Origin: Labyrinthula sp. Ha
Taxonomy: Eukaryota; Sar; Bigyra; Labyrinthulida; Labyrinthulaceae
DNA length: 64,000 bases
Assembly: GCA_015227615.1 (NCBI GenBank)
Contig: JAALGZ010000045.1
Span: 1-64,000 of the forward strand
Direction: 5' to 3'
The position numbers and the translations under genes were made by a program. How positions within the stretch are numbered: position 1 is the stretch's first letter; every line of letters starts with the position of its first letter. The notes beneath the pieces are model-generated. The model was not told where the DNA came from. It searched no databases and saw only the letters and a list, made by a program, of their open reading frames with translations. Positions 5,171 through 57,345 of the stretch are shown piece after piece.

Positions 5171-6857
5171 AATGATACAATTTATAATTGTTATGCTTCT
5201 TTTATTCAATATTTATTTGAATTTGTTCTTTTTCATACCCAAAAGTATGTCTTTGTTGGACATTCCAAAATAGTCATGTTTATATTTTTACTGAACAAAT
5301 AAAATATTTAAAAGAATAAGAAATATAAAATATAATATCAATAGATTCTAATCCATTGAATAGAAAACATATAAAAAATACAATTATACGTCTAAAAGTA
5401 AAATAAATATTTATTAGAACTAAAATTTTAGTTTCAATGGTGTATTGAAATCGAGATAAACTCCCTCTTCTTGATGGATAAAACATCTACAGGAGAGAAC
5501 TCCTGTTTGCTGATATACTGATTGAAGAAAATATAATTTTATTGGATATACTGGAAAGATAAACAAGTTATCTTAATTTAAACTATCTGCCACTCTAACT
5601 TGATGCCTTCAATTTCCTACTAATGCGTGTACTAGCTAAGAAATCAATAATGGTATTAAAATAGTATGAAAGATTATGGAATAACGACTGGCCTCTAAGT
5701 ATATGTCAAACTTTTGACTTGAGCTTATGTTAAAATATATCCTTCTGCTCGTATCCCTCACTTAATACTTCTTCCACTTTAGAACACGTTGCCTTCTTCT
5801 TCTACTAGTACACACGAAAAACCCCATGTGAATACCATCTAGCTTAAAGTTCGATCAAATATTTCCTTTTCGTGTAAAGTGAAACAAATTTAATATAGAA
5901 TATTTTTTCCGGTAATAGAGATTAACTTTAGTTAATCTGTTAGAAATTTCATCACACTTCTCTTTCTCTTGGTATAAAACCACCTATCTGAATAGATAAC
6001 TAAACATTCAGAAGAACATTAAGATTTCCGGAAAACCCTATTTCAAATAAACAAAATTAGCTAGCAGTGCTTTGGAATTAAAACGTTGAATTATGCATCA
6101 AATATTAGAATATGTTTCTTTGGTGTTCATGAACTTTGTACATAGACAAAAAAGATTTCACAGTATATTCTCTTGTATTAGAGTTCATTTGTAGAATATG
6201 AGTAGTTCTTGCTATGAGGTTGCTTAGATGTCAAACTGCTAGGTGGAAATAAAAATCCATTTTTCGTATATTGGCTTAGACTCTTTTCACGTACTCTAAT
6301 AAAAGCCAATTTAACAAATCTATTTATCATTTACTTTATGGTTTGAGAATCGTAAACATACTTTGAGACATAATTTTTTTTCGTAAGTAAAGTTTGAAAT
6401 ATAATCAAAACTACTCAACTCAACCTAAATCAAGAATTAGGATAATATGATAAACTATTTAATACTCCGGTAACTCCATTCTTGGAGAATTCGTTTCATA
6501 CAAATATTCTTCAGTCTTTAAATATGAGGTGGTTATATATCTTGTTTTCCTGTATTGTGCAAATATTAAATACTAAATAAAACCTCTTATTATCAATCCA
6601 AGAAACCAGCAGACAAAGTACACAAATAAATATGAGTAGAATCTTTATTCAGTACTTGGTATATGATTATAAGCTGCTAGGTTTTTGTGTGTTGACACCA
6701 TGCAGTTTTAAAACTCATTTTCATATATCCTTCATTTCAAGTGATTATTTAGATCTTTTTGCAGAAGTTAGACTATACTAATCATAATTATCTAACAAAA
6801 TAAAATCAAATTTTATTCTACCTTTCAGACCTTCACAGCAAAGAATTTCTTATCTAT
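5171..6857. other. Non-coding right part of duplicated segment, copy 1
   Basis: AT-rich sequence upstream of the 319-codon gene with no convincing ORF. It aligns with 19575-19636 plus 23888-25379 plus 33140-33277 of copy 2. The two places where copy 2 was interrupted are intact here: near 5213-5232 (the LINE site) and near 6715-6745 (the element A site). These are the ancestral empty sites. Confidence 0.8.
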
Positions 6858-6859
6858 CC

Positions 6860-7150
6860 ATTGTATCGATATAAGTATAAATTGGTTAGTATTTAATAAT
6901 GTATTCTATTGGTTACAAGGTACGTTGTGATTGATTAGTAATTACGATCATAAGAGTCAGAGTTACAATCCAATACAATAGCAAAAAAGTACAACTAAAT
7001 AAGAAGTAAAAGAAAGAGATAACAAACGAGTGTCAAGGAGCAATCAGGCAATTTTAATAGTGAACAGAGAGACAATCAAGCAAAGTATCTAAAAGTTCGA
7101 ACGAGTACCTATCTATCTGAGCCAAATTCCAGATAGATCTACTATAAATG
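6860..7150 (+). mobile_element. Old LTR (solo or 5' LTR) related to the LTRs of element D
   Basis: The stretch AGAGTCAGAGTTACAATCCA near 6955-6975 and its A-rich continuation align with the middle of the element D LTRs (45190-45330 and 54490-54645). Just downstream, ACCTATCTATCTGAG ... CCAGATAGATCTACT (about 7107-7143) matches the ACCTATCTGCCTGAG ... CCAGACAGATCTATT found right after the 5' LTR of D. No second LTR was found, so it is either a solo LTR or the left end of a largely lost element. It is old and diverged. Its left edge coincides with the right edge of duplication copy 1. Confidence 0.55.
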
Positions 7151-15784: not shown

Positions 15785-18300
15785 ACAGATGCTGAGAAAA
15801 ACCGAGCATCAAGTCTCTAAATCAGCAAAGAACCGGAAGGAATTTGTAGGAGACAGTTTTCCCTACATTAGCCATTAGGGGTAGATCCTAGTCATAACAA
15901 GTGAAGCTATCAGAAAGCTTTTCTTGATCTATGCAAATTAGGTACTGCAAGAGCAGTGGTTACAGTATTATTTGAATTGCATGGCTGGGTTGGGTAAAGG
16001 GATATATTTTAAATTATCATCGACAGAAGAGGTTATTTATGCAATGAACTTAAAGATCAATTATCTAGGTGGCTTAGATTTAGTCATGCCTACAATATAA
16101 GTTACACGCCAAGAATATACGGATTAAACCAGGTGAGTAACGTGTCTATATTGATAGTGATGTTGATCATTTGCAGTTAACCAATTCTAAAACGCACAGA
16201 ATGGTCTCAGCTGTTCTCACACAATATGGCGACGATAAAAACGACAACTATCAGAAAGAATGAAAGGACCTTTACGAACTATTTATTCTTAGGACGATAG
16301 GAACTAAATGAGAAAAAAACCGATGCCATTGAACTGAAAAAGTGCCAATCAGAGCTATGAAAAAAGTTTGGGGAACTACAATGAGGCCATTGGGAAACAT
16401 AGAAAGATAAGAAGACGCTGTAGGCAGACTAGGAGTGATGATCTACAACAAGCAGGGGAGGTGTAATTTTATGTGAAGACCCAGGAAATTAGGGCTAAGT
16501 TGCATGTAATAGATTTCATAGCACAAAGGTCCTACCATTCCATCGGGGGGAATGGATTATTGTCAGTTTGGCAGGAACGCAGAAGGGAAGGTAAAAAAAT
16601 TAATGTAAAATAAAAAAGCCCTTGCATGGTTAAAGAGAAAATCTCAAATACCTTTTACAAAGTAGAGAGCTTAATCTAAAAGGCCAAGTTAGTCCATGCG
16701 AGAAGACTCATGTGATATGAAGGAAAAACTTATGAACCAAGTGCAAAGATATCAGAACATTTTAAGTGGGATGAAAGAAACTTATATGTCATAAAACTTA
16801 TGAAGCTAAAACTAAGAGACTCTGCATACTTCTTAGAAGTGTAGTGGCTTAGGATGGGGAAGAAGAATGCAACAATGGAGATAATCAAAATTATGGCTGA
16901 GGAGGTATAGGATATGGTGGTGAATTTTCTCGGGGGTAAGAAAGTAGGAAGCAAAGAAAGTAGACACCGATAACGAGCCTTGAAAGTATTAGATAAGAAG
17001 ATTAGAGAGAGTATTTACTTAGGATCAGAAGACATAAACTGCTGTAAGGAGGAGAATGATCGATCAAGATAGTCCACAGACAGCAAAGGATGGTTCAAGA
17101 TAGAAAAACATAACTTTGTGCAGTGTGAAATGGTGCACTGGATTGGGAATTACACGGCAATGCATAGGAGGAAGCACTTACCAGGGAAACCACATAACAG
17201 AGGTATTCACAGATGCAGAACATCATCGAAAAATAGTCCTTGGATGAATATTCTAGAGTTCAACCTAGCGACAAAGAAATCGTGTTGCAAAATAGACGGA
17301 AGTATGGCACGAAGAGATATTTTCAAATTTCCCGAATAATTTCCAAGACAGAAAGTTTGCGAAAGGATTATTCGATCTATGAAAGCATAAGTTAAAGGTT
17401 GCATTAAAGCTCTTCTTCAGAAAAGGATTCGATACAATGGAACCAAGAAGAGAGAAACTTGCTTTCCTGAAGAATAATGCGAAAAAGTAATTATAGAAAG
17501 TGTATGGCTAAGAATAGGGAGGAGTGAAAGTCAGGAATTGATTAGAGAATCGGATAGCATGTGCAAGGAAAGCGATGATCAGACAAGAAAGGAAGAATGT
17601 GAGTAGAAGAAGTTTGTAGAGGTTTAGAGTGCAAGAAATCTGTGTGAAGGAACGCACCAGATAACCTTAGGAGGGAAGCAGTGGACGATTGAGACGGATA
17701 ATAGATTGAATAAGACTTGAGGCATGGATGGAAGAGTCAAGTATGAATTCCCATGGATACCTGCAAACAGCTTGCGGATAAGCATGGATGTTGCTGAGGT
17801 TGAAATACTGCTTTAAGATTTTCTTAGATGGAACCGCAGTAGATGTGTTATTCCTGCATCCCCGGTGGAGCATATCAGCATTGGATCCGATTAGAGGAGC
17901 AGCTTTAGATTATAGAATATTGAAGGTTGATCAAGTGCCGTGGACCATGCTGTTCGAGTTGCTTCCAAATGGATTTAGCTTTTTCGGGCTAGTAAATGCA
18001 GTAGAGGTCAGAGCACAAAGAATTATTCGATATGCAGTCTTAAATCTCATGAAAGCCGTTTCTTGTATAAAAGGTAATGTTGACGAAGAACTGTGACCAT
18101 CTATATGTTATTTAGTGATGCACGGGAAAGAAACTTCTTTGGTTGATAAGAAAGAAAAATCTTCGAAAAACCAGATTAGACAAAACAGTGGAGTTGATGT
18201 GATCTTTGAATCGCATCGAGAAAGAAACAGAAAACTACAACGCTTGCATGCGGTAAATATTGCCCAAGTTTCAAAGAATGTAATCAAATTCAAATATTTG
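15785..18300 (+). mobile_element. Fossil LTR-retroelement segment B, copy 2
   Basis: The duplicate of 1380-3900, with the same integrase remnants (about 15785-16300) and the same MT-A70-like remnant (about 17690-18300). It arose by duplication of the surrounding segment and not by retrotransposition, since the flanks are duplicated with it. It is broken in many places. Its methyltransferase stretch is less open than in copy 1. Confidence 0.7.
17690..18300 (+). pseudogene. MT-A70-like methyltransferase remnant of fossil B, copy 2
   Basis: Aligns codon for codon with 3283-3897 over most of its length, including the degenerate catalytic-motif region near 17857-17868 and the LPNGFSFFGLVN segment. 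It is interrupted, whereas copy 1 is not. It has the same family assignment and the same caution as copy 1: a fossil with no evidence of activity. Confidence 0.62.
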
Positions 18301-19574: not shown

Positions 19575-19624
19575 AATGATACAATTTATAATTGTTATGC
19601 TTCTTTTATTCAATATTTATTTGA

Positions 19625-20346: not shown

Positions 20347-20655
20347 TCAGGGTGGAAGGATTTCGTTTATTTGTTCCAGCAGTTGAATATAGTCCATTGG
20401 GTTCATTCCTCTTCCTCCAGCTGTTATTCTTGACGTTTCTCTCAGGGCTTTAGGTGTTATTCTGGTTGTTGTGTTTTCTGTGGGTTGATTGTGGATGTTG
20501 TATCTTGGTCGAAGGATGGGTGTTAATGGTCTTCTTCTCGTGTCCAGGCTCCTGTTCATATCCAAGTCCAAGTCAGTGTTCCTGTTCAAGTCCAAGTTCG
20601 TGTTCATGCTCCTGCTCGCGTCCAAGTTCCTGTTCAAGTGCTGGTTCCTGTTCAA
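20347..20655 (-). pseudogene. C-terminal tail frame of the LINE, repeat-rich
   Basis: An open stretch of 102 codons beginning with TTG (not ATG), overlapping the end of the main LINE frame in another register. It starts inside a short tandem repeat of about 12 bp (CAGGAACTTGAA-like), which encodes LNRN-type repeats in both registers. The simplest reading is a length change in this slippery repeat that split off the last 100 codons of the LINE protein. A separate small ORF is less likely. Confidence 0.5.
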
Positions 20656-23600: not shown

Positions 23601-23873
23601 CGCAGCTTTTTCAGGCAGTTTTGAGAAAAACCACCTTCCTGAAGCCGAGCTAACGTTCACCATTCGCTGTAGGCGTTGCATTCCCTGCTTGTGCAGTTCC
23701 TGCAACATTAAGATTTCGTTTTCTTTAGTAAGTTGTTGTACGTAGCTGCACTTAAAGGCAGTTAGACCACCAACATTCACGCTCACCAACTTGGGAGAGC
23801 GCTTCAGTCGGCTCGCTACCCCTGGGACTTCTTTCGAAGGAGTAGAAAGGTCGCTACTCTGAAAACTTTGCAT
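20652..23873 (-). pseudogene. LINE polyprotein: endonuclease, reverse transcriptase, C2HC finger (two in-frame stops)
   Basis: One frame of 1074 codons starting at ATG 23873 and interrupted by two TAA codons (22502-22500 and 21515-21513), otherwise open. The N-terminal 300 residues form an apurinic/apyrimidinic-type endonuclease: SVNVGGL, MLQELH, CGDFNAQ, SEIDYVV and FDHLALSI carry the expected N, E, D-x-N, D and D-H residues. Reverse transcriptase follows: KAPGPDNI, YRPISLL, QAGFRNNRST, FIDFAKAFDSI, GVLQGDSLSP and the catalytic FADD (near 21640-21665). After the palm comes a zinc-finger-like CERCDRYFH...H...C segment (near 21455-21390), then a thumb beginning YKYLGTIFD. The rarity of breaks implies a fairly young copy. 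Confidence 0.92.
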
Positions 23874-25379: not shown

Positions 25380-25543
25380 TGTCCATCCTATGTAGACTAG
25401 GCTGCTCGGATTTTCTAATGTGACATAGTTGATAATAAGCCGCTGGAATATTTAGTAAGACCTAGCCGTTATTACTTCAATTTAAGATCTAAGTTTGAAA
25501 TAAAGAAGAAGACTTCAGATCAATCTACCTAGATTACGTGACA
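25380..25543 (+). repeat. 5' LTR of element A
   Basis: 164 bp, begins TGTCCATCC and ends ACGTGACA. Close to its end AATCTACCTAGATT can fold into a small hairpin. The sequence right after it (TTATTCGAATAACG) is palindromic and does not look like an ordinary tRNA primer site. Confidence 0.93.
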
Positions 25544-25685
25544 TTATTCGAATAACGTAAAAAGTTATTTAAAGAGATACAAGAAAAGACTATATGGCTC
25601 CCCCTGAAAAGCAGAAGAAAGGCAAAAAGCCTTCCCATGAAGCCGCAAGTCCCGATAAAAAAATGAAACCGCCGGTCAAGAGGCG

Positions 25686-26860
25686 ATGACCCCAGAGACC
25701 GACAAAAATGAGGACGAGGCATTTATGGAAACTCACAGCGACAAGGAGGTGAGTCTTACAGTTGAGGAGGTTAAAACATTACTGGATCAAGAGCACAATA
25801 AGGAGGTACCCATACCCCAGGAATCTGAAACTTCAAATCCTTTGGTTTTGGAACAGGAAGTGAGTAAGCAAATGGTTAAGGCCTTTAGCCCCACGAGAGC
25901 GGTTACACAAAGTATAAAGAGTCAGCTCCAGGCTATCCTAACTAGCGACGTTTTTATGGGAACCCTTGAGAGTAGCATGAAAAAGATCGCAATCACTACG
26001 GTCCAGGAACAGTTGCCAAAAAAGATAGAAAAGGACAAAGAGAGTTTGAGTCCAGCTGTAACCGATGAAAAGAGACCAATGAAGTCAAAGGTGCACAAAA
26101 ATAAGTCGAAAAGCAGTAGAAAAATACAGAGGAACCAAAGCAGACTTTGCTATTGGACCACAGCCGCTTCTCTGAGGAATTATTAAGAGAATCAGACTCT
26201 GGAAGTATGATCAGTGGCGTCACAAAGGCAAACCTTTCGGCGGTGGAAACATTGTCAAGGCAGTATGTTCCGTTTGCGCAACCTGAAAAGCTCAAAACAT
26301 TGAAAGGGACAAAAGTTGATGAATTTATGCATGAGTTCATGACCTTGAAGTAGAATGCCAAGGGAATAAACATACAGAACTTGTTATCTAAAAAAGTTTA
26401 AGATACACTCAAGGCAAAAAGGGTAAATGTTCAAGCGACTAGAGCGGTAGAAGCTTATTTAGAGAATAGAAGAACCAAGTTCAAAGCAAGAAATAAGAAG
26501 AACGCTATCAAAAGGATGAAAGATAACCTAACGTGGCGCAGAAATCTTATAGGTGGAGACAAACAGGTTGACAACTTTTTCGATGACGTCGATATGTTCT
26601 TGTCAGATTTAACTCCAAAGGAAAAGAAGCTACATTTCAAGAAAATTATAAAGATCATGGTTAACACTTTACCCTCATCATTCAAGATATCTGCAGATAA
26701 GGTGAGTTATAATAAACAACTCTGTTCAATGAAAAACTTCAAGGAGTTGCTGTATTCTAGAAGTTTTGTGGCGGAGAAGCAAAAACCAAAGGTTAGAGCA
26801 ACTAAAAACGAGAAACCTTCTATAGCTAAGCCAGAACATGAAGTAAAAAAATAAGGTGAT
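25686..26860 (+). other. Gag-like region of element A
   Basis: Several open stretches encode a charged N-terminal region and then a capsid-like helical part (VDNFFDDVDMFLSDLT, IIKIMVNTLPSS). A similar segment occurs in element C near 63400-63530. The lysine-rich end fits a nucleocapsid. Broken. Confidence 0.6.
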
Positions 26861-26929
26861 AAAGTTGAGAAGATTGGGCAAAGAAGCCCAAAAGCTACAC
26901 TTGCATTTAAAGAACGTGAAGACCGGCTC

Positions 26930-27250
26930 CTTTGAAGAGGTAAATGGAATAGCCGACACAGGTTAGGACTGTAACATCCCTCTGTTTTCGATTATACCGA
27001 AGTTTGCGAAGTCAGTCGAAGATTCTCAATACATTTTCGAGATAGAATATCCGTAGAAAACGCGCTACAAGGTCAAAAAGGTAGTTCTATCTGACGCCAT
27101 GTTGGTCCAGGGCGAGCTACAATTGTCGATGAATAAACAGAGATTCTTTTGCGTGGACCATAGAAATTGGACGGAAATTCTCATAGGCCTAAATACCCTG
27201 AACAAGTATGGTCCTAGGTTAGACCTAAAAAACGCACCACAAGCAAAGCC
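26930..27250 (+). other. Aspartic protease region of element A
   Basis: The segment VNGIADTG carries the D-T-G active-site triplet of retroviral-type proteases (bases near 26954-26962). It lies between the gag-like region and the reverse transcriptase, as expected. Broken. Confidence 0.6.
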
Positions 27251-27979
27251 ACGAGCATAGGAGATAGACAAGAAGAAGCAGAAAAACACTTCTTTGATGT
27301 CGGAAAATGACTTTAACAAACCAGTTGGTTCAAGATGTGTAGAACAGAAGCCGATGCTAAAAGGTGCCCAAGTTTTGGTAGTAGGTGTCCACTATAATGA
27401 GGAAGTACCTATTGAAATACTGAAGAATAAGCTTATCGACAAAGACTATGAGCTCTTAGCTATCCAGGTGTACTATAAGAATATACAGTAAATCAAAGAG
27501 TTCCTTATGAAGGAATCTTATACATTTATTAACAACTAGTTTTATACAGTCCGAGCCTAAAGCCTACTCAAGGCCATTTTTTCGAACACTTCAACACAAA
27601 GTATCTAATTTACCGAAGTAACAAAACAAGTCAACATATTTTTAACTTCCAGAAGGGAAAAGATCTTGTGATCCAAGACGACTCAAAGGAAAAATAATTA
27701 TATAAACTATTCAAGAAGATACTTAACACTCAAGAATTAAGGGTTGACACGGTCACTATTGTAAACGAGGCAATCTAAATAGCCAAGTTAGAAGTAACCC
27801 CTCTAAGTTAAATGGACACGTTCATGGCAGATGAACTGGTGGAGTTGGTAAATCACCAGAGAGATATAAAGCCTATTCTAATAAAAAAAATGCTAGAACG
27901 AATACCCAATGAGTTCAACAAAAAAGGACTCGGAAAAGGAAAGATTTAGGTTGAGCAGGAAAAAGAAAATAAGAATAAA

Positions 27980-29600
27980 ATGATTAGCCAAAAGATTGAA
28001 GCCAGTGAAGCAACTAAGGACCAAAAATTGTATTTAGAGAACACACTGAGAGCGAACCTTTCTAGCTTTGGACTGGAACAAAGCAACGCTCGTATGTCCT
28101 ATCTTACTCCTATTGAAGTGGATTTAGTGCCGGGACACAAGGTTATTAAAAGTAGCGGCTATCACTTTACAAATGAAGAGGAGTAGTTCATACAAAGAAA
28201 GTTCATTACCTTGCAGAAGGTTGGTATAGCCGAAGCATCGAAGAACACATTATGGGTGTTACCAATATTCATAGTTCCAAAGAAAATAAAAACCACTAGT
28301 GAATGGGAAAATCTAAGCGCGGAAAAGAAACAGAAATGGGACGATCAAAACTTATTAAATAGGTACCTAATGGTAGCAAATATGGCACGATTAAATGATA
28401 TTACCATACGTACCAGTCTAGATTTACTTAACCTTGAGAGACAGATGACCAGTTTGAGGGCACAAAGTATTACTTAACTCTGAATATTTTATCCGTATTC
28501 GATTTTCTTTCCACAAAACCCGAGCACATGAAGTATTTCACCCTTATAATAAGAAAGGGGGCATGGCAATTAAATGGGGCTCCGATGGGCTGGGCGAATA
28601 TGTCCGCACTTTTTGTGATAGGATTGTAAATGATATAATCGACGACGAGAACGCCAGTACGAGATACTTTTGCAGGCCAAAAACTGATGCTCTAGCATAG
28701 TTTTATGACCTACTCTTATATTCAAAGACATAGGAAGACCTAATGGACATGCTGGAAGAGATAATAAAGCGTGTGGCAAAAGAAATATCCGTTTCAATTT
28801 ACGAAAGTGTGAATTCTTGGAGAAAACTCTAGTTTGGTGCGGTCAATAAATAAGATGTGGCTCTTGGAACTTTGTGGAGAAATGTTATGAGGTAATAATG
28901 AACATGCCTAAGCCGGAATTTGAACATCAAGCAGCTCAGTTAATATAATTATTAAATTAGCTAGGACCGAACATATCAAAATTTGCAGAGTTGCAGTTAC
29001 ATTTTAATGAGCAAGCCAATTTGCAAGGGAAAACGCTAAAACAAGTTGAAAAAGAGCAAATCCCCGTAGAGTGGACCAAACAAATGGAGGAATCTTATTC
29101 CGAGATAAGGACAGTATTCAACGACTCGAGCAAATGTTTCTTGGCAAACTACGATGAGAAGTCCCCGATTTTGTTATTCACAGACTCGTCAAATGTTTGT
29201 TTGGTCGTTATCAGTATTTCAAGATGATATAGAAAATATTTCAAATATTTTACAAGAACTACGACCACGCCCACTGTTGTTCTTAAGTGGAAAATTCAAA
29301 GAGAATGAAACTAGATGGCATATAAGCAGCAAAAAGCTGTATCCAGTCGCCTACTCATTCGAAAGAATTTTTTTATTCTTAAAATGCACCGAGCAGGAAT
29401 ATTTTTATATACGGACCATAAAACCATTTTGACGGTATTGAAATCTTAGAAAAACGAAAAATGGATTTACTGGGATAGGTTATATAGATGGAGCATTAGG
29501 TTGCAGGAAGTGGATCTGACAGTGTTTCATCTCAGCTCGCGGGACAACTTCATGGCTGATATTTTAACAAGATGGGTACATGAGGCACATGAAGATAAAT
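27980..29600 (+). other. Reverse transcriptase and RNase H region of element A
   Basis: The reverse transcriptase N-terminal pattern is seen in TPIEVDLVPG, VGIAEASK, PIFIVPKK and YLMVANMARLNDITI, then NGAPMGWANMSALF. The RNase H part shows LLFTDSSN, WHISSKKLYPVAY and SSRDNFMADILTRW. The order and motifs are those of Ty3/Gypsy pol. Broken in several places. Confidence 0.85.
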
Positions 29601-30029
29601 ACACGAAGCTTCTGGATCTCAGAAAGGCAAATCTCTGTATTAACATAGAAGAACAATAATTTAATTTCAGCCATGATGAATCAAGAAATACACTGACTTT
29701 GAACCAGGGCGACTTATCTTTATCCAAAGGGGAAGAATAGACGGATGTCTAACGAGATATGCTCATTAATGCAAGAGCGATAACAACAGCCAGCAACAAC
29801 GTATAATACTTTGCGGCAAATAAAACTGAATTCCCCGAGAAACTTCAAGAATTAAGAGACAATTTAATAATGCAGCATGTGAGTTTTCTGATTTCATATT
29901 ACTCGGACAATACATGGAAGCTTTTTACCGAGGAAGAAATAGTAGAGTCACAGCAGGACCTGGTTGATAAGGAGTATGGCAAAAAGGAGGGTATCTACTA
30001 CAGAACAAGAAAATGGTAATACCGGCTAA

Positions 30030-30690
30030 ACTGGTGACCTGTTTAATAGTAGGACTTCATATTTCGAGGGGACACCCCTTCGGGGTTGAGGAGAAAGCAC
30101 AATTAAAAGGATTTCATTTTGAAGGTTAAAAGAAGTCAGATGTGGATCTGTTGCTTATATCATTTAGGCAAAGGTGCCCACACGGCTGTAGAGCTCCCCG
30201 ACTTATTATAAGACCTTATAACTTACACGACTAGCAATGAACATAAGACAGATATTACACGCTGATTTCCTTTATGTCAACACAGTTGGCTATATACTAG
30301 TCGTATTAGACGGATGCACTAGAAAGACTCATTTAACGTTATCGTAGACAGCTTCATCAGAAACAGTAGTCGACGCGCTACAGAAATAGAGAGGAGATTT
30401 CGGGTTTGACCCATACTTTCTCCTGGTGACTGATAACGCTTCTCACTTCGCGAACGCGCTTATGGAAGAACTGACGCGCAGCATCAGTTTCGAGCAGTCG
30501 TTCAACATAGCATATGAACCCTGGACAAACGGAGCGGTCGAAATAACTAACTCAGGGATCTTGAAGCATATGAGAGCGCTAATATCACAATACTCCCTAC
30601 GCGAGACGCAGTGGCCGAGCTTAATTCCGCTATTGAATCACATAGTTAACAACAAGCCCTCGGACAGAAGGGGTAGATTTACATAGAACG
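30030..30690 (+). other. Integrase region of element A
   Basis: DFLYVNTVGYILVVLDGCTR starts the core domain; LVTDNASHFANAL and WTNGAVEITN give the second Asp and the Glu of the D-D-E triad. The long stretch 30426-30686 is open and matches 59334-58459 of element C closely. Broken elsewhere. Confidence 0.88.
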
Positions 30691-31189
30691 AACTGTTCTT
30701 ATTCTATAAACTAGAAACGACGTTATATCTACAGAACCCTAAGCATTTGCCGTCAAAATAGAAAAGCAGTTAAAGCAGCCGATGGATGTGGACAAGCTTA
30801 TTCAGGAAGCGACAAAAATAAAGGAGATATTGCATGGTAAGTGTGAAAGAGCATATGAACTTACACGATTGGTCAGACTCGCCAAGAACAAAAGGAGAGG
30901 GAAGAACATAACCTTAGTGATTCAATTCTCCCCAGGTGATTACGTTTTGGTCAGCGAAACGAACACAATAACAACCCAGGAGAAAACAAGAATAACCTGA
31001 CATGGCCCGTATCAGGTCACGGAAATAATAAGCAGGGATATATATAATGCTGAAAGCCTCATGGCAAAGAAAAGATCGTACATGCAACCATAATATGGTT
31101 CTACTCGACTATAGAGCCGCTAGGGGCACAAGCTGAGGCAAATCTTCATGCACAATTTCAATGCTGTAGAAGTGGATAAGATCTTGGAC

Positions 31190-32000
31190 GTCAGACTAAG
31201 GGGGCACAAAGACCAAGATTGGAGGCAAAAGTAAGATAGAGAGAATTCGAGAAAACAGACGACGAATGGCTCCCTCTTAAGAGCTTATACAACGCTCTAC
31301 CGGAATTAGTGCTGAAGTACTTGGAAGTTACAGAAATACTCAAGCCAGAAAAGAGAGTGATATATAATAGGATCCTGAAGTGGGAACCAGGTCCCAAGAC
31401 AAAAAAGTTGCGAAACATAATCAAGGTTAACGCGGTGAAAATGAAGAACCCCCGCGCAGTGTTCCCAAAATACACGCTAGGGTGGTACGCTGAGGAGAAA
31501 GAGGTTTTGGAAGCACTCATAAAGAAGTTGGGATGTGGGAACTACGAAGTCTATTTAATCTCAGGCGTGTTACCGCGACGGAACAAGTAGCAACTATCCA
31601 CCCAGATGCAAAGGCTAATGCACTTCCAAGCAATAGGCCCGTTTCACGGCATCAATATAGACCTAGAAAAAGCGAAAAAGTTTCTCAGCGAGGAAATGGG
31701 AATACACAAGTTTACGAAGAGACTCCCTGGATAGTTCATATCAAAGCAGGGGGAGAGGGAGTTAATCTCCGTATCCAGGAGGGAGCTGCACGAAACAGAA
31801 CTCAGAGAAACTACAAAAATCCCATATTTCAGGAGGTTTGAAGACCCGGAGAGTTTACGCCTAGCGACCCAGGAATGGGAATGGAAAGAGTGCAGGGAAC
31901 TCTTCATAGCTAAGAGTATCAAGACAAAGCAGGAATTGGAGAAGTGCCTGGAGCAGTTCAATCTAAAAGCTAACAAAGCGCTAAAGAAAGTGGAACCATA
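31190..32000 (+). other. Spacer of element A with Myb/SANT-like segment
   Basis: Between integrase and methyltransferase lies a conserved segment beginning YTLGWYAEEKEVLEALIKK (from about 31471), followed by LGCGNYEVYL, LPRRN and a QAIGPFHG piece. The W-x-EE, GxGN, LP-R spacing resembles a Myb/SANT DNA-binding repeat. The same order (DWYPGKRLILEALVLKYGCG ... QAIGFFHG) is present in element C near 58215-58030, so the segment is a conserved part of this lineage. Broken. Confidence 0.55.
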
Positions 32001-32138
32001 ACTGGGCCTTATCGCAAAACTATATGAGCAAGACGACGTGTTATTCTACTCGTTGCACGCATTGAAAACCCTGCTAGGCGACCGGTCAATGGCCCAAAAA
32101 TCAACTTTGAGCAGCAGCAGATCAAACTTTATTTTGCA

Positions 32139-32963
32139 GTGGGATCTCTTGTCATATCTTTTAGGGTAACAAGAGACCTCATAGAGGTAGAGGTCCTGGA
32201 AGTGACACAGAGCAGAAAAAAACTAGTCCTGCACTACAACGGAGGAAATGTTTTTGAGCTACCTGAAACAGGTCACCGTATCTACATGGACCCACCGATG
32301 GCAAAACCGGTATTATGCAACGTGTTTGATTTGAATTTTAATTCCCCGAAGAAGAAGCAAAATAGGTTTCAAATAGTTCTCATGGATCCCCTTTGGGGCG
32401 CGGGCACTAGGCATCCTATGCGCGATGTAGCGCTGGAATATCCAACAATCCCCCTGAAAAAGTTCAAGTCTCTAAACTTTCCGCCAGAGCTATTAGTACA
32501 GCCTTCATTTCTATTTATCTGGGTTACAAACCGCAGTTTCTTCGATACTGTTTCTTGGGCACAGGAGAAGGGATACGCGTTAGTTGATGAGATAGTATGG
32601 ATCAAAAGACACAATTCTGGGTCGTTGACAGGGTCACTAGGGCAATATTTACAACATGCGCAAGAAACTTGCCTGTTGTTTAGGTCGCTTTCAAAGTCAG
32701 GATATTTCAAAGATATGTTCCAGGAGATTTGCAAGTTCCAAGGATCTTCGACCATAGTAGCAAACCCTCAGATGAATTCTTTTAAACCACTTGAACTGTA
32801 CACCCTTATAGAAGATACGTGGCCGCACATGAACTACTTGGAGTTATTCGGGACTCATAAGAATTTGAGGCCTAAGTGGACAACCGTTGGGCTTGATCTG
32901 ACTCCTCATTTTTTGTTGAATTACTTAACTTACGATCGTGAAGATTGGAAGGCCCCTCTCTAA
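32139..32963 (+). other. MT-A70 adenine methyltransferase domain of element A
   Basis: The longest uninterrupted stretch of element A, 274 codons, with no ATG at its left edge, so it was probably translated as part of a polyprotein. It shows the D-P-P-W-type catalytic motif (bases 32385-32396, read as MDPLW), then ALEYPTIPL, PSFLFIWVTN, HAQETCLLF, FKPLELYTLIEDTWP and a C-terminal LELFGTHKNLRPKWTTVG. These match in order the METTL3/METTL14/METTL4 fold (HxKEHCLxG, KPxEIYxxIE, ELFGRxHNxRPxWxxxG). Known members methylate N6 of adenine in RNA or DNA using S-adenosylmethionine. The substrate of this one is unknown. Similar domains lie in element C and in fossil B. Confidence 0.9.
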
Positions 32964-32975
32964 AAAAAAGGGGGA
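32962..32975 (+). promoter_or_regulatory. Polypurine tract of element A
   Basis: AAAAAAAAGGGGGA directly abuts the 3' LTR, the place and composition expected for the plus-strand primer. Element C has an almost identical tract. Confidence 0.85.
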
Positions 32976-33139
32976 TGTCCATTCTACGTGGACTAGGCTG
33001 CTCGGATTTTCTAATGTGACATAGTTGATAATAGGCCGTTGGAATATTTAGTAAGACCTAGCCGTTAGTACTTTAATTTAAGATCTAAGTTTGAAATAAA
33101 GAAGAAGATTTCAGATCAATCTACTTAGATTACGTGACA
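32976..33139 (+). repeat. 3' LTR of element A
   Basis: 164 bp, aligned without gaps to 25380-25543 with 9 differences. Confidence 0.93.
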
Positions 33140-49182: not shown

Positions 49183-50406
49183 ATGGTGGAAGCGGCTGGC
49201 AACGCTAACGAAGACCAGCGTGACCAGCTCATGAATTTAAGCTTCAAGTATGAAGATGTTTTTGCGACGAGTGCATCGCAAATAGGAATCAGCCTTTTGC
49301 CGCCTATGGACGTTGTACCGACACAAGGCGCGGAGTTCAAAAAACCGGCGCCGTGGCCGTTGGGGCCTGGAAAGGCGGAGTTTGTAAAGGAAAAATTGGA
49401 CGGAATGGTCGAGAAGGGTATGGCAAAGAAAATCCGACAAGCGATCTATGGGTCGGTTGTCTTTGCAGTCCCTAAGAAGAATAATACTTGGCACATGGTG
49501 TTAGACCTAGTCGCAGTAAATAGGGTGTTACATAGGGATGTGAATATACTCCCTATACTTGAAACACAAGTGGTCAACACAGCGCCCGCACGTTTTTACG
49601 GATGTCTGGATGTCGTTAGTGGCTTTGATCAATTAGCAATTACTGACCGCGCTAAAAAGTACTTCAATCTTATGACAACCTATGGAGTGTTCCAATTGCA
49701 ATTTGCGCCAATGGGATACCATTCGACGCCGGTATTTTTTCATCAGCGCATGGTGGATCGTATTGCGGCGGCTAATTATAATAGAAAAGGTAATGGAATC
49801 GTTCAATGGATAGACGATACGTTGATACACGCAAAGGACTTTAAGCGCTACATCAGAATACTAGAGGATGTTTTGCGAAATTTGCAAAAATGGAAAGCAA
49901 GGATTAGCCCGACGAAGTCGATATTATTTACAACGGGTATTGAGTATTGTGGAGGAATTTTGCAGAATGGTGGATGGAATTTTTCAAAGAAGTATTATGA
50001 GAAAATTTTACTTGTCCCAAAGCCTGAGTATGTATATGAGTTAGCAAAGCTCTTACACTTGGCGCAATGGTTAACGTCGGCGGTTCCTGAAATGACGGAG
50101 CTTAGAGACAAAATTATGTTATTTTACCCAGAGATGAAAGGAAAGAAGAAAAAGCTTCTTAAAGAGAAAAAGCGAATTTTGTGGAACGAGGAATTAGAGA
50201 CGGCGTTTAAGCGCTTTAAACAAAGGTTGGCGGATGCCGCAAAGGCCCGCCTGCAGCATTACGATCGAAACATGGATTTGATCCTAGTAACCGGCGCGTC
50301 GGATAAATACCACAGCGCCATCCTATTCCAAGCGCTAAGAAGAGCGCGGAAAGGATTTGTTAAAGAAGACGGTTTATCCGATGATGTTTTTCAGCGGGAA
50401 ATTTGA
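49183..50406 (+). other. Reverse transcriptase region of element D
   Basis: An open stretch of 407 codons. Motifs: YGSVVFAVPKKNNTWHMVLD, RFYGCLDVVSGFDQL, LQFAPMGYHSTPVFFHQRM, IVQWIDDTLIHA (catalytic DD near 49810-49818) and IEYCGGILQNGGW. The frame runs on into the RNase H start. Ty3/Gypsy order. Confidence 0.93.
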
Positions 50407-50845
50407 CGCTAGTCAACTTGTATGGGGTATATGTCATAAAGAACTGTACCCCATAATTCGAACGTTTAATAAACTTCCATGCTTGTTGCCGTTTCATCCA
50501 ACAGCGGTACAAGTATATACAGATCACCTCAACCTCAAGGCAATATTACAAGGTGGGTCAAAGATTAACAATGGGCATTTTAACCGCCTGCAACGCTGGA
50601 TGGTGATATTGCAGCATGTGTTGGTGGATATTCATCACCTTGACGGAGATAGTAATATATTCGCGGACATGCTTACGAGATGGGCGGCGCCAACCGAAGA
50701 AAGTAACATGGCGGCCGTCCGCATAGTGAAAATGCAGACGCAGAACGTGGAAACGAGGGTACCTGTTCTGGCGCGTGCAGAAAAGCGCTTAAGGAAGATT
50801 TCCAAGATGCGCCAGGAGGAAACTGACGCTAAGATAATAGAGTAG
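50357..50845 (+). other. RNase H region of element D
   Basis: FDASQLVWGICHKELYPIIR, VQVYTDHLNLKAIL and LDGDSNIFADMLTRW match the RNase H and tether pattern of Ty3/Gypsy elements. Confidence 0.88.
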
Positions 50846-50848
50846 CTT

Positions 50849-52890
50849 ATGGAAGCGGTTATCGACACCCTATCGGTATATACGGTGAGGGACGACTCGC
50901 TATTATGTGGCGAAGACCGGTACTTCAGGATTAAGAGTGATTTTGAAGGATGGACACCTGACCTCTTGCAACCTAAGAATGTTCAATGGGTAGAAGGTTT
51001 AGAGATAGATATGAGCGCAAGATATTTCGCGCAACCAATTTTGGCGCAGCAGAAACGCATAGTTAGGGGAATTGTGAGAAAGCCGCCGCCGCCGAAAGAT
51101 AGAGCAGATCTGATGAGAGAAGTTGAGCGTCAGATTAGAAGGAAATATACTGTGGAGGAGTGTAGAAAGTTGACGGAGAACTTTGCGACGTGGCCGAGCG
51201 AAGTTCCGTCGGATGTTAGCGACACTAATAAGAAGCGCTACATTGAGACGGATACTTATTTGACGTCGGAAGATGAAGATAACACGACGGCAAAAATAAG
51301 AAGCGTGACGGCTAGAATCAATCATCTAAGACCAAAACAACAAATGGAAAAGAAAATTTATGCGTCGCTAAAGTCACTTGATAGATATAGCGTATCAGTA
51401 TTCAACCCATATTTTAAAGGTGATTGGGCGCCGCTGATGGAAGCGGAAGTCATTGAAGCGCAAAAAAGGGAAATGATTACTAGAACCTCGAGAATAAAAG
51501 GTTGGTGGGAAAGATTATTTTGCCGCCCTCCCTCTTGGAGCGGGAATTAGTTCATATACATTTGGCGAATAAGCATGGGTCACTCGAAGCGGACTTAGCG
51601 GAAGCGGCTAAATTTGAATGGAGAATACCCGCCGCTATGGAGAGCGCGCTACGAGGTGATACTCCATGGAAGAAGGTGGTTGAATTAATCCCTGTATTTA
51701 GAGATAACTGTATACATTACCACAGACTTCCTAAAGCAATCAAAACAACGTATAGCCTAGTTACAAGACCCAGGCGCTCGCGCGAAACTTTGTTCGCGGA
51801 TTTCCTATATGTGAATAGAATAGGACATATCTTAGTATTGATGGATGTCTATAGTAGATTCAAGCAGTTAACGCATACTAAAACGCCTGATATGCAGGCG
51901 GTTATAGAAGCGCTTGACAAATTTGCGACAAATTATAAATTGGAAAAAGACTTTACGTTAGTAACAGACCGCAGAAGTCAATTTGCGAATTCATTAATGA
52001 CGGTGCTTAGGAAGGAGCTTTGTTTTTCACAAAGTTTCGTGGTATCTTATGCGAGCTGGACAAACGGAGAAGTTGAAGCTGTGAATAAGAATATGTTGAA
52101 TTCTTGAAGAGTTTAGTTAACGAATATCGGCTAAATGAGGATGAGTAGCCAAAAATATTGAATAAAATTCAAGGTGCGATGAATGAATTACCGGTGCATT
52201 CACGGAAAATACCCGGTCGGAAGAATGAATCAACGGCATATGAATTATTTCTGTATGTGAGTCCGGAGCGCCAATATATTGAACCTGCAGGTCTTTCACC
52301 GATAGTGGAGAGGATCCGAGGCGGCGCTAGAATATTGATCGTTATTGATGACGATGTGCTGTACAAATTGAGTTCCGCTTTCAGAAAGCGGTTAGATGAA
52401 TATGAAAAGAAAGTCGCCAAGTATGTAGAATTTCAGAAAGTGCTGAATAATATGGGGAAGAGGACGGCCGTGGATCGAGCACTACTTCAATATAATGAAG
52501 GAGATTGGTACATGGTATCATCGAAGGGCACCCAAGAGAGCGTGATAATTTAGCGCTAGAGTGATCTGCCCCTTAGCAAATAGTGGAAGTAGTTTCAAAG
52601 AATTTGTATAAGGTTAAAACACTAGATGGAAAAGCGCCGGAGATACATGGAAATCGGTTATATTTTTTAAGCCAAGCGGTTTAGTACCATCGGAAGCACT
52701 CAGAAAGGTTTATTTCGGAAATTTTAAGCACTTAGAAGTAGCATGTTTCGGAGACGTTAGGTATGACCCTCATTTAACCGAATATGTCGTGAAAGTTAAA
52801 TGGAGGGGTTTCTGCGAACCAGACAATGCTTGAAAACCTATCCAAACGATTTATGAAGATGTTAAAAATGTTTAGACGGAGCATTTATCG
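50849..52890 (+). other. Integrase and chromodomain region of element D
   Basis: 51502-52107 is open and holds a zinc-binding H-H-C-H-like start (HIHLANKHG ... CIHYHRLPK), FADFLYVNRIGHILVLMDVY, LVTDRRSQFANSL and WTNGEVEAVNKN, i.e. the D-D-E core. 50849-51550 is a linker of unknown role. Near 52750-52890 a segment YVVKVKWRGFCEPDNA followed by a Pro and ...IYEDV resembles a chromodomain, which in this group steers integration to chromatin marks. Broken. Confidence 0.75.
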
Positions 52891-52899
52891 GCTAAGAAG

Positions 52900-54395
52900 C
52901 TCAGACCAAACCAGAATAAGTTGCACAAAAAAGCGAAACAAGGGCTTATGACAGCAGAACATGTTGTCGATTGAATAATAAGAAGAGTGCCGGAATTTTG
53001 AAAGTAGCATAGCTACTTGACGGAAATAAGAGCAAAATTACCGAAGGAGGAGCAATAGGTAGCTGCGGTAAAAGGACGGACAAAAGCGGGAAAACAGGGG
53101 ATAAGAAAGTTGGTTCTAAAATTCCGTATAGGTCATTTTGAGAAATATTGATTATATATCCCGAATAAAAGTACGTCTATAATCCGATACTATATCCAGC
53201 AGCGGCTAAAACGGCTGGATCTTGAGAATACAGGGGGAGAACGTTGGGATATTGAGAAAGGAGGGAAATCAAGTGAAAAGATAAGTTGTATGGATTTTTG
53301 TTGTGTAAGACAATTTTCCGACTGAGAAAAGGCATTAGTTCTTTTGAAAGAGAAAATAGTAAAGGAGTTTCCGCCAAAATATGTGACAGATCTGCGGAAG
53401 CACATAAAACGAGCCGCCGATTATGTTAGAGAAGCGGCGGAGCTGTGCAGGAAACTGGTGACATATGGAAAAAAATGATAAGTAAGATGGTTATCGTTTT
53501 TGAGGAGAATAAGTTAGTGGAATGGGAGGCAAATTGTTTTCGGAGAGGATACAAGCGCCATGATGAGCCGACCAGGACACCGCGGGTATTGACGAACATC
53601 CCATATCAAATTGAAAAGGATGCGAAATGACGGTATCTGATATCCTACATCGGAGGGGTGAAACTTACCGTAGTACAGTTCGCGGGGGCGGGTGTTTGAG
53701 ATTTTGCTTGAAGTAAGCGATTGGTGCTCAAATGATGTATAGCGCCACCTGAATCGGTATGGTATACACCTAATCCGTATGACAAGAGTTGGAGTCGGAA
53801 AGTAGTAGAATTACTGTCACTTAAGTTGATTTTAGCTGATACTTCTTGGAAGGACGTAGAAGCAAACAAAAGCGGAAATAACAAAATTGAACTTATGAGC
53901 TTTGGGGTAGAAGCGATAAGACCAAAGTACGCGGGAGGTTGGATTCCGCAATGGAGTTTGCGGCAAGCCTTCCAATATATGAAATAGTCGGATTATAAGA
54001 CCGTTCATAGTTGGATGCGGGTAAGATGACGCCGCGCGGGAAAATAAGAGGAGCGTTGGAAAAGTTATTCCAGATAGCGCATGAAGTGCTGTACCTCTTT
54101 AAGCGGAGTAGTGTCGAGGGATCGGCAGAGTTAGAAGTATTAAGAGAACAGGAAGTAATACTTTCCGATCGAGCTAAGCACGGAGCAAAATCATTAGTAG
54201 TAAAAGAATGAATTAGGCGGGCGATGGTAGATGAAGCGGTTCTGATGGAAGTATTTGCCAATACGAGCGGACTACAGAAAGGAATGCTACAGATCAAAAC
54301 TTGGGTTGATCCATACGGAAGAACGAGAAGTTTTGAGATACAGGCGATGCTTAGGCAGAATGGAGTCTTGCATTTATGGGAAGAGATTGATATAT
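52900..54395 (+). other. 3' region of element D, no recognised domain
   Basis: GC-richer sequence with several protein-like open fragments (for example AADYVREAAELCRKLV near 53405-53455). I cannot assign a family. It occupies the place where elements A and C carry the Myb-like and MT-A70 segments, but I see no such motif here. Confidence 0.45.
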
Positions 54396-54645
54396 TGTCA
54401 TAAGGAACATGTATTGATTTATTACTTAATTGCTAGAAATGTATACTTGAATAAACAGAGCAATATAATTGGATAAAACTATGAACGAAAAAGACACAGT
54501 TAAGAATCCAACAGAATAGAAAGAAGGAATAAAGTAACAAAAAATAAATTAAAGTTAATTTAAAGAACAAGAGTCCACCAAGAGAGCTAGCCAATAGTGA
54601 TAAACTTGATCAGGAGGTAAAAGACCTATTCACGTGAATCTGACA
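54396..54645 (+). repeat. 3' LTR of element D
   Basis: About 250 bp, begins TGTCATAAGG and ends CACGTGAATCTGACA. Paired with 45086-45333. Confidence 0.75.
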
Positions 54646-56719: not shown

Positions 56720-57345
56720 GTGGTTTGAAAACAGGTATGTAAGATGTGTCTTTGGTTTCAGATCCAATCCAATAGCAGTCCATTAAGATCTGACTTTGTT
56801 ACTTCTGGAGAATATATCAACCTTATTAGCAAAAGGGTAGAGTTTATTGAGAATATAATAGAGTAATTCTGGCTTTGTAGATGGAAGAGTAGTGTAAGTT
56901 CTTAAAATAGATTTGAATTTTTGCTCTTCAACTTTGTTAAAGGTATGAATATATTTTAATTAAGGCGAGGATCTTCTTTCAAAAACTAAACATGTTTCCT
57001 GAGAGTGTTGAAGAAAATGACTCAAACTCTTGAAAAGTTTCACGTTTTTAGTATATTTGATCCAAGTGATGTAATCAATTAAATAATAATGTTGTTCCGC
57101 GGCCCAATTTAAAGCACAATGGTAACTATAATTAGTCACCTAAACACATTAATGGAAACCAAAAGGAAAGTGAGATAAAGAAAGTTTGATCTTTTGAAAC
57201 TCTTCTAAAGATAAAGTAGGATATTTCAACGCAACTGCACCAGTTGGATTTTTGCTTTCCACAGACCATGGAGGATCCATAACAACAACTTGAAAAATGT
57301 TGTTTTTAGATTTAGGTTTGTAAAATTGAAGGTTAAATATATTAG

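What the first reader, a model, noticed from the sequence alone, without database searches (positions are those of the whole stretch)
25380..33139. Ty3/Gypsy-like retrotransposon carrying an MT-A70 adenine methyltransferase
Seen: the 274-codon stretch at 32139-32963, between the integrase region and the polypurine tract, has the D-P-x-W motif, FLFIWVTN, an H-x-x-E-x-C-L stretch, KPLELYTLIE and LELFG..KNLRPKWTTVG in METTL3/METTL4 order. It is inside the LTR boundaries, so it is element cargo. Known: MT-A70 proteins make N6-methyladenine in RNA or DNA. C5 cytosine methyltransferases in retroelements and Dam-like domains in DIRS elements have been described, but I do not know of MT-A70 as a standard part of a Ty3/Gypsy lineage. 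Inference: the element may have methylated its own RNA or DNA to escape silencing or to steer expression.
Basis: partly seen in the sequence, partly recalled or inferred. Interest (0 to 1): 0.92.

Follow-up and report, generated by a model that had tools for sequence, protein, structure and literature searches.

The report
Retrotransposons carrying a DNA-adenine methyltransferase
A large family of jumping genes in a eukaryote carries, fused into its own replication protein, relatives of the enzyme and of the DNA-binding partner that eukaryotes use to put a methyl mark on adenines of active DNA, so these elements may mark their own DNA as 'active'.

Summary
Confirmed and enlarged. The window element (25380-33139; LTRs, 4-bp TSD, empty-site paralogue) carries an MT-A70 domain (Pfam E=3e-22) but is a decayed copy (DPLW). 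It is not a one-off: the host genome lists at least 159 MT-A70 places, and the domain sits at a fixed distance behind the integrase of Ty3/Gypsy chromodomain elements. Integrase hits that at first seemed to lack it were re-examined: 19 of 19 carry it.

The domain is not METTL3/METTL4 but AMT1/MTA1-type, the eukaryotic DNA-6mA writer (219 bits against 147 for METTL3), and the domain upstream is p1, the DNA-binding partner of AMT1 in ciliate MTA1c. So the elements carry a fused p1+AMT1 module; the host keeps a free AMT1 and two free p1 genes.

Both domains are under purifying selection in the pairs measured (median dN/dS about 0.1), most families keep catalytic residues, and MT-A70 distances track RT distances (r=0.89): an old, retained capture.

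Function is inferred: ApT methylation of element DNA to copy the host's 'active' mark. Activity is untested; ciliate MTA1 also needs p2 and MTA9, not found here. The literature searches made found no description.

The parts
25380..25543 (+). 5' LTR (164 nt)
   Evidence: direct repeat, 95% identical to the 3' LTR
25544..25555 (.). 12-nt palindrome TTATTCGAATAA directly behind the 5' LTR, where a tRNA primer-binding site would be expected
25659..26854 (+). gag-like open segments (no Pfam match; assignment by position only)
28055..28846 (+). reverse transcriptase, broken over several frames
   Evidence: four colinear profile matches, best E=8e-14
28961..29432 (+). RNase H-like segments
   Evidence: weak Pfam RT_RNaseH/RT_RNaseH_2 matches below the curated cut-off, E=0.0018 and 0.00076
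30004..30656 (+). integrase core, broken
   Evidence: three profile matches, E=6e-32 for the main piece
31246..31326 (+). chromodomain remnant
   Evidence: profile match E=2e-4
31474..31722 (+). p1-type Myb/homeobox-like domain (MTA1c p1 family), split over two frames
   Evidence: profile matches E=4e-8 and 4e-9; also hit by the Tetrahymena p1 query, 38.6 bits
32355..32900 (+). MT-A70 methyltransferase domain, AMT1/MTA1 type; decayed motif DPLW
   Evidence: PF05063 E=3.2e-22; element profile E=6.5e-43; residues
32962..32975 (+). polypurine tract AAAAAAAAGGGGGA
   Evidence: sequence printed
32976..33139 (+). 3' LTR (164 nt)
5221..6874 (+). paralogue of the flanks without the element (empty site)
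3430..3894 (+). MT-A70 of a second, decayed element
   Evidence: profile match E=3e-18
17836..18252 (+). MT-A70 of its duplicate (segmental duplication 1-5212 / 14406-19616)
   Evidence: profile matches E=6e-8 and 2e-4; duplication
56786..57304 (-). MT-A70 of another decayed element (RT to MT-A70, 61707-56786)
   Evidence: three colinear profile matches, best E=9e-13, with p1, chromo, IN and RT upstream
49246..54400 (+). fifth element: RT, IN and chromodomain; p1 and MT-A70 only as weak colinear traces
   Evidence: none at E 1e-3; weak p1 E=0.01 and MT-A70 E=0.005

Best explanation
This is a diverse lineage of Ty3/Gypsy chromodomain LTR retrotransposons, some copies of it young, that long ago took up the core of the eukaryotic DNA-6mA writer, the catalytic subunit AMT1/MTA1 and its DNA-binding partner p1, and kept both at the C-terminus of the Gag-Pol polyprotein: gag-(protease)-RT-RNase H-integrase-chromodomain-p1-(protease)-AMT1. 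Likely working (inferred): the module is made with RT and integrase, travels with them, and methylates ApT sites of the new element DNA during or soon after integration, perhaps with host MTA9- and p2-type partners. Because AMT1-type 6mA marks the start of active genes, the new copy would be born with the host's 'active' label and be less easily silenced. Shown: anatomy, family assignment, copy number, purifying selection in the pairs measured, kept residues, co-inheritance with RT. Inferred: activity, substrate, timing and benefit.
For: Ty3/Gypsy: the RT profile's best solved relatives are Ty3 RT (4ol8 E=4.9e-36; 7q5b). Fourteen long-frame copies, fetched because they have MT-A70, all have RVT_1, RNase H and rve matches at E<=0.01, and 13 of 14 Chromo. 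Direct LTR pairs in 19 of 20 such loci (chosen mainly for long frames), nine full-length pairs over 99% identical; one frame of at least 1700 aa in 17 of 20. The reverse survey: 70 of 150 integrase hits have a listed MT-A70 2019-2382 bp downstream, and of the other 80, 19 of 19 that could be read carry it (4; 15). 109 of 148 p1 hits have a listed MT-A70 597-1495 bp downstream. AMT1: profile 219 bits against 147 METTL3, 86 METTL14, 55 for 7cv6 and 55 for MTA9; the PxRG box of AMT1-like proteins is kept, R in 42 of 42 and G in 41 of 42 elements. p1: one element p1 hits MTA1c p1 at 3.6e-14, the next Myb protein at 3e-4; profile 2.2e-21 against 1.1e-12; L014 matches p1 residues 21-156 and no other Myb protein. 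Selection: median dN/dS (range) 0.107 (0.053-0.314) MT-A70, 28 pairs; 0.09 (0.031-0.369) p1, 25; 0.063 (0.057-0.193) RT, 4; 0.045 (0.023-0.742) IN, 8. Residues: catalytic D in 41 of 42, DPPW or DPPY in 33 of 42, K334 42, R357 40, N360 39 of 42. RT and MT-A70 distances r=0.888, 0 of 5000 permutations as high; RT-IN 0.900. Host free AMT1 and two free p1 genes. 6mA near active gene starts in AMT1 species: PMC12695648 (passages).
Against: No enzyme assay and no 6mA map. Ciliate MTA1, MTA1-MTA9 and MTA1-MTA9-p1 have almost no activity, MTA1-p1-p2 weak (PMC9174199, passages); no p2 or MTA9 was noticed in the elements, and they were not searched for in the host (no query sequence was obtained). Some families have altered motifs (DPAW 3, and DAPW, DFPW, DFPY, DLPF, NPPW, DPLW one each of 42), and N370 is kept in only 10 and D182 in 27 of 42, so some domains may only bind. 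In the species of PMC12695648 TEs are not enriched in 6mA (passages); whether any of them has such elements was not checked. The LTRs of nine elements show no excess of ApT (median o/e 0.80 against 0.82 in 20 background windows) and fewer SATS sites than background at equal G+C (5.4 against 10.5 per kb); internal regions have more (18-20 per kb) but also higher G+C: no footprint for marking of the LTR. In the MT-A70 tree elements without P0015 are rejected as one clade (p=0.005); with P0015 one clade is only not rejected (p=0.116).
Confidence: 0.6

Rival explanations
1. Targeting module: p1 and the MT-A70 fold, next to the chromodomain, serve to bring the integration complex to 6mA-marked, open chromatin; methyl transfer is secondary or absent in some families.
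For: p1 is a DNA-binding subunit (PMC9852454, PMC9174199, passages); p1 and MT-A70 follow integrase and chromodomain in the aligned elements; some families have altered catalytic motifs.
Against: The catalytic D (41 of 42) and SAM-site residues K334, R357 and N360 (42, 40 and 39 of 42) are kept and the domain is under purifying selection, more than a pure tether should need.
Confidence: 0.17
2. Shield: 6mA on the new cDNA protects it from a host nuclease or sensor that recognises unmarked DNA, like an anti-restriction methylase.
For: The cargo is encoded in the same open frame as RT, so it would be present at cDNA synthesis; the host has its own AMT1 and p1, so its DNA may be marked.
Against: No such nuclease was sought; none was met in the passages read.
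Confidence: 0.1
3. Self-restraint: the mark limits copy number or keeps the element quiet, a long-term truce with the host.
For: Many families have persisted and diversified in one genome; de Mendoza 2018 (PMC5890265, passages) discusses self-methylation by retrotransposon DNMTs.
Against: AMT1-type 6mA is linked to active regions (PMC12695648, passages); several copies look young (nine full LTR pairs over 99% identical).
Confidence: 0.06
4. RNA m6A writer of the METTL3/METTL4 type acting on element RNA.
For: METTL3 is also a significant relative (147 bits).
Against: AMT1 scores far higher and p1, the partner of AMT1, is fused next to it; MTA1c has no or weak activity on RNA (PMC9174199, passages).
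Confidence: 0.05
5. One-off capture of a host pseudogene, or an assembly artefact.
For: The window copy is decayed.
Against: At least 159 MT-A70 places over many contigs, fixed spacing behind integrase and p1, 19 of 19 re-examined copies with it, open frames between young LTRs, purifying selection.
Confidence: 0.01

Closest known systems
Retrotransposons with captured C5 cytosine DNMTs: SymbioLINE-Dnmt, SymbioDIRS-Dnmt3 and KnitGypsy-Dnmt3 (de Mendoza et al. 2018, PMC5890265, passages read)
   Same: A host-type DNA methyltransferase in a retrotransposon, many copies, purifying selection on the cargo; in KnitGypsy the DNMT is in the Pol polyprotein of a Gypsy element.
   Different: There the enzyme is a cytosine DNMT; here it is the unrelated MT-A70/AMT1 adenine writer, with its DNA-binding partner p1 taken up as well, in another host.
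DIRS elements with Dam-like adenine methyltransferases (as cited in PMC5890265)
   Same: Retroelement with an N6-adenine methyltransferase.
   Different: Bacterial Dam-type enzyme in DIRS elements; here a eukaryotic AMT1-type enzyme in an LTR/integrase element.
AMT1/MTA1c complex of ciliates (MTA1, MTA9, p1, p2; PMC9174199, PMC9852454, passages read)
   Same: Catalytic subunit and p1 subunit are the closest solved relatives of the two fused domains.
   Different: In ciliates a four-subunit complex of separate proteins; here p1 and AMT1 are part of Gag-Pol, in some lineages with the protease motif between them; no MTA9 or p2 noticed.
Chromoviruses (chromodomain Ty3/Gypsy elements; name recalled, with listings)
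   Same: RT nearest to Ty3, chromodomain behind the integrase.
   Different: The added p1-AMT1 module, and a palindrome where a tRNA primer site is expected.

Membership tests
Ty3/Gypsy LTR retrotransposon, chromodomain type | LTRs and short target-site duplication | tested here: met
   LTR pairs in 19 of 20 fetched loci; a 4-bp TSD read by eye in 12 of 16 elements printed (not in L010, L015, L025; L028 unclear) and for the window element
Ty3/Gypsy LTR retrotransposon, chromodomain type | RT-RNase H-integrase order with RT closest to Ty3 | tested here: met
   Pfam positions; RT profile best solved relatives Ty3 4ol8 and 7q5b
Ty3/Gypsy LTR retrotransposon, chromodomain type | chromodomain behind the integrase | tested here: met
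   Chromo in 13 of 14
Ty3/Gypsy LTR retrotransposon, chromodomain type | tRNA-complementary primer-binding site next to the 5' LTR | tested here: inconclusive
   17 of 17 examined elements show a 12-18 nt palindrome there; no comparison with the genome's tRNAs was made
Ty3/Gypsy LTR retrotransposon, chromodomain type | protease between gag and RT | tested here: inconclusive
   motif DSGA before RT in 5 of 14, between p1 and MT-A70 in 7 of 14, not found in 2 of 14; Pfam protease support is weak
AMT1/MTA1 (eukaryotic DNA-6mA methyltransferase) | best profile match to MTA1 over METTL3, METTL14, METTL4-type and MTA9 | tested here: met
   219, 147, 86, 55 and 55 bits
AMT1/MTA1 (eukaryotic DNA-6mA methyltransferase) | DPPW motif and SAM-site residues | tested here: met
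   D 41 of 42; DPPW/Y 33 of 42; K334 42, R357 40, N360 39 of 42; weaker at 182 (D in 27) and 370 (N in 10). The window copy itself fails (DPLW)
AMT1/MTA1 (eukaryotic DNA-6mA methyltransferase) | tree position with free AMT1 | tested here: inconclusive
   elements and AMT1-like proteins join against prokaryote-type MT-A70 at 100/100; METTL3/14/4 were not in the tree; one origin not shown
AMT1/MTA1 (eukaryotic DNA-6mA methyltransferase) | methylates ApT in double-stranded DNA | not testable with these tools
   needs an enzyme assay or long-read 6mA data
MTA1c p1 subunit | homology over the p1 region beyond a generic Myb fold | tested here: met
   L014 aligns to p1 residues 21-156 with no other Myb hit; profile 2.2e-21 against 1.1e-12 for the next; p1 tree separates free and element p1 at 95/95
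METTL3/METTL4 (RNA m6A) | closest relative METTL3 or METTL4 | tested here: not met
Retrotransposon with captured DNA methyltransferase | cargo shared by many copies, open frames, purifying selection | tested here: met

The most novel reading that the evidence does not exclude
These retrotransposons encode a self-contained DNA-6mA writer (p1 fused to AMT1, released by a protease placed between them in some lineages) that stamps each newly made copy with the host's ApT 'active gene' mark before or at integration, a self-licensing retrotransposon whose epigenetic state travels with it, combined with a tRNA-independent, palindrome-based start of reverse transcription.
Probability: 0.3. Interest if true: 0.95.

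Novelty: new variant of a known kind. Interest (0 to 1): 0.85.

Why it matters
Retroelements with cytosine methyltransferases or Dam-like enzymes were known (PMC5890265), but a lineage that carries the eukaryotic 6mA writer together with its DNA-binding partner was not described in any listing of the literature searches made on this (open-licence PMC papers only). The role of 6mA in eukaryotes is debated. Here 109 listed p1-MT-A70 pairs in one genome, diverged and, in the pairs measured, kept by selection inside parasitic DNA, offer a test of what the mark is good for: if selfish DNA keeps an 'activating' writer, the mark probably has a causal benefit for transcription, survival or targeting. 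It is also a natural experiment on whether p1-AMT1 can work without MTA9 and p2.

Tried and rejected
One-off pseudogene: rejected by the genome survey. METTL3/METTL4 placement: rejected by profile scores and the p1 neighbour. Generic Myb/SANT domain: rejected, p1 is far the best match. 'Many Gypsy copies lack MT-A70': the first matching gave only 70 of 150, but the MT-A70 lists stop at the best 150; of the 80 others 20 were asked for, all with frames of 800 aa or more; one lay beyond its contig end and 19 of 19 read carry MT-A70. The remaining 60 of the 80, among them one long-frame case beside L011 and the short-frame, decayed cases, were not re-examined. ApT or SATS footprint: none for the LTRs. 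Relatives elsewhere: fused polyproteins turned up only under EukProt entries, 4 and 6; eight of these ten look the same as a fetched locus of this genome in the MT-A70 ends printed (P0001/L011, P0002/L039, P0003/L037, P0004/L045, P0005/L021, P0006/L020, P0008/L019, P0009/L044), P0007 and P0010 were not matched to a locus. One IMG/VR scan gave 15 pattern matches, none a relative. P0015, a metagenome protein, groups with one element: an element elsewhere or a divergent free AMT1, not settled. Phage MT-A70 proteins are only distant (71 records, 27-30% identity in those listed). Naming the organism: only that it is a eukaryote by rRNA; a paper search for assembly numbers gave nothing. Rows dropped before counts: of 82 MT-A70 matches in the held sequences 72 were near full length; 19 named rows (near-identical loci, database duplicates of loci, one partial window copy) and the non-element rows were left out to give 42 elements. 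dN/dS used only pairs from different loci with dS between 0.05 and 1.5. Loci L009-L028 were fetched around MT-A70 hits and chosen mainly for long frames, so they say nothing on the share of copies with MT-A70 or of intact copies.

Full report
WHAT IS IN THE WINDOW. Window 32139-32963 matches Pfam MT-A70 at E=3.2e-22. It lies in a 311-codon open frame, 32028-32963, just before a purine run and the 3' LTR. The LTRs, 25380-25543 and 32976-33139, are 164 nt and 95% identical. The window also holds the empty site: a paralogue of the flanks at 5221-6874 lacks the element; the spacing between repeats jumps by 7764 bases, that is the 7760-base element plus a 4-base duplication ACTT. Profiles made from related elements place RT (28055-28846), integrase (30004-30656), chromodomain, p1 (31474-31722) and MT-A70 (32355-32900) in order, with RT, IN and p1 broken over frames. 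This copy is decayed: its catalytic motif reads DPLW. The same window holds three more MT-A70 remnants (3430-3894, 17836-18252, and 56786-57304 on the minus strand) and a fifth element in which none is seen at E 1e-3 and only weak colinear traces of p1 (0.01) and MT-A70 (0.005) at a loose threshold; a better p1 trace (E=0.00016) on the other strand at 54704-54784 is unexplained.

HOW COMMON. In the 50.8-Mb genome the Pfam model gave 150 scored matches out of 354 candidates, all above the curated cut-off. A second search added nine places, so at least 159 MT-A70 places, one of which is the host's own gene. Twenty loci were fetched around MT-A70 hits, mostly those in long frames: 19 have direct LTR pairs, nine of them (L010-L014, L016, L018, L022, L024) full pairs over 99% identical, and 17 have one open frame of 1700 aa or more. 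Fourteen of these polyproteins all have RVT_1, RNase H and integrase matches at E<=0.01, and 13 a chromodomain. The reverse question is free of that choice: of 150 hits with one element's integrase, 70 have a listed MT-A70 2019-2382 bases downstream. The MT-A70 lists are cut at 150, so the other 80 are not true negatives. Twenty of them, with frames of 800 aa or more, were asked for; one lay beyond its contig, and 19 of 19 carry MT-A70, on the expected strand (the weakest best match E=2e-10). Of 148 element p1 hits, 109 have a listed MT-A70 597-1495 bases downstream. So the domain is a standard part of this lineage; short, decayed copies were not re-examined.

WHAT THE DOMAINS ARE. The RT profile is nearest to Ty3. 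The MT-A70 profile is nearest to ciliate MTA1, the catalytic subunit of the DNA-6mA complex MTA1c: 219 bits, against 147 for METTL3, 86 for METTL14, 55 for 7cv6 (listed as methyltransferase-like protein 2, which I recall as plant METTL4) and 55 for MTA9. The elements keep the box that in AMT1-like proteins reads PTRG or PSRG: R in 42 of 42, G in 41 of 42. The domain upstream was first seen as a weak Myb match (4 of 14). Against solved structures it is p1, a DNA-binding subunit of MTA1c: 3.6e-14 for one sequence, the next Myb protein 3e-4; 2.2e-21 against 1.1e-12 for the profile; and L014 aligns with p1 residues 21-156 and no other Myb protein. The elements thus carry two partners of one enzyme complex in one frame.

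HOST. A free AMT1 frame (L008; 743 bits to itself, the best other hit 160) matches MTA1 at 3.7e-73. Two free p1 genes (L053, L054) outscore the other hits with the ciliate p1 query (95 and 93 bits against 69 or less), and L054 matches p1 at 4.8e-34. The host also has two C5-methyltransferase matches.

SELECTION AND HISTORY. In pairs with dS 0.05-1.5 the median dN/dS (range) is 0.107 (0.053-0.314) for MT-A70, 28 pairs; 0.09 (0.031-0.369) for p1, 25 pairs; 0.063 (0.057-0.193) for RT, 4 pairs; and 0.045 (0.023-0.742) for IN, 8 pairs; pairs share copies and are not independent. MT-A70 and RT distances of 15 elements correlate at 0.888 (RT-IN 0.900), 0 of 5000 permutations reach it, and 8 of 12 splits are shared. 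So MT-A70 has travelled with RT. In the MT-A70 tree of 54 rows elements and AMT1-like proteins join against prokaryote-type proteins at 100/100, six of seven AMT1-like proteins form a group at 96/96 apart from the elements, and the seventh, the metagenome protein P0015, groups with one element. Elements alone as one clade are rejected (p=0.005), elements plus P0015 are not (p=0.116). The p1 tree puts free p1 and element p1 on two sides at 95/95. An old capture is the simplest reading; one origin is not proved.

CATALYTIC STATE. Residues from the MTA1 structures (PMC9852454, PMC9174199, passages): D209 in 41 of 42, DPPW or DPPY in 33 of 42, K334 42, R357 40, N360 39 of 42; but D182 in 27 and N370 in only 10 of 42. 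Most families look able to bind SAM and catalyse; some (DPAW in 3, single other variants) may not.

HOW IT LIKELY WORKS. Shown: the module is encoded in frame with Pol. Inferred: it is made and carried with RT and integrase, and methylates ApT in new element DNA. In species with AMT1, 6mA marks the starts of active genes (PMC12695648, passages). An element that marks its own copies would gain the host's active label. Against: ciliate MTA1 needs p2 for SAM binding and works well only as the four-part complex (PMC9174199, passages), and no p2 or MTA9 was noticed in the elements; they may borrow host partners, which were not searched for. LTRs have no excess of ApT and fewer SATS sites than background at equal G+C, so there is no footprint of marking there. 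The rivals, targeting, shielding and self-restraint, are weighed in their sections.

COMPARISON. Retrotransposons with cytosine DNMTs, one of them Gypsy, and DIRS elements with Dam-like enzymes are known (PMC5890265, passages). No paper describing MT-A70, AMT1 or p1 in LTR elements appeared in the listings of the searches made for it (passages were read of PMC12695648, PMC9174199, PMC9852454, PMC5890265 and PMC1282579 only). In a database of 5.8 billion proteins fused polyproteins turned up only in EukProt entries, 4 and 6, eight of which look like loci of this genome; the search needs shared 5-residue words, so distant relatives could be missed.

A SECOND ODDITY. In 17 of 17 elements examined (about seven different sequences) a perfect palindrome of 12-18 nt lies at or across the end of the 5' LTR, where a tRNA primer site is expected; in background windows of the same elements one as long occurs 0-3 times in about 275-317. 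The protease motif also moves: DSGA lies before RT in 5 of 14 polyproteins and between p1 and MT-A70 in 7 of 14. Both deserve their own study.

Noticed in passing
window 25544-25555; L009-L018, L022-L025, L027, L028 at the 5' LTR/internal junction: Perfect 12-18 nt palindromes (for example AATATTGGATCCAATATT) where a tRNA primer site is expected, in 17 of 17 elements examined, about seven different sequences; suggests an unusual priming of reverse transcription.
   Followed up: partly
L010-L013, L019 against L009, L014, L015, L018, L020, L021, L027: The aspartic protease motif DSGA lies before RT in 5 of 14 polyproteins and between p1 and MT-A70 in 7 of 14.
   Followed up: partly
L055 (G000:C49): The 18S rRNA match spans 1655 bases of locus for about 560 model positions, with a coding-like stretch inside, as if a non-LTR element were inserted in the 18S gene; an RT match in a 2901-aa frame lies just upstream on C49.
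   Followed up: no
window 1-5212 and 14406-19616: Segmental duplication of about 5 kb, segments 91-99% identical, with an open frame of 333 aa in both copies.
   Followed up: no
window 20655-23873 (-): Open frames with an RVT_1 match at 21522-22172, probably a non-LTR retrotransposon.
   Followed up: no
window 61970-62449: Tandem array with a 24-bp unit, 14 registers.
   Followed up: no
G000:C77:362853-363845 and C121:1129060-1130208: Two C5 cytosine methyltransferase matches in the host genome, so 5mC may exist beside 6mA.
   Followed up: no
L053 1333-2484: One of the two free host p1 genes has a long C-terminal extension after the p1 region, which by eye (from recall, not tested) resembles a Tudor-like domain.
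   Followed up: no
window 54704-54784 (-): Short p1-like trace (E=0.00016) on the minus strand inside the fifth element's downstream region; origin not clear.
   Followed up: no
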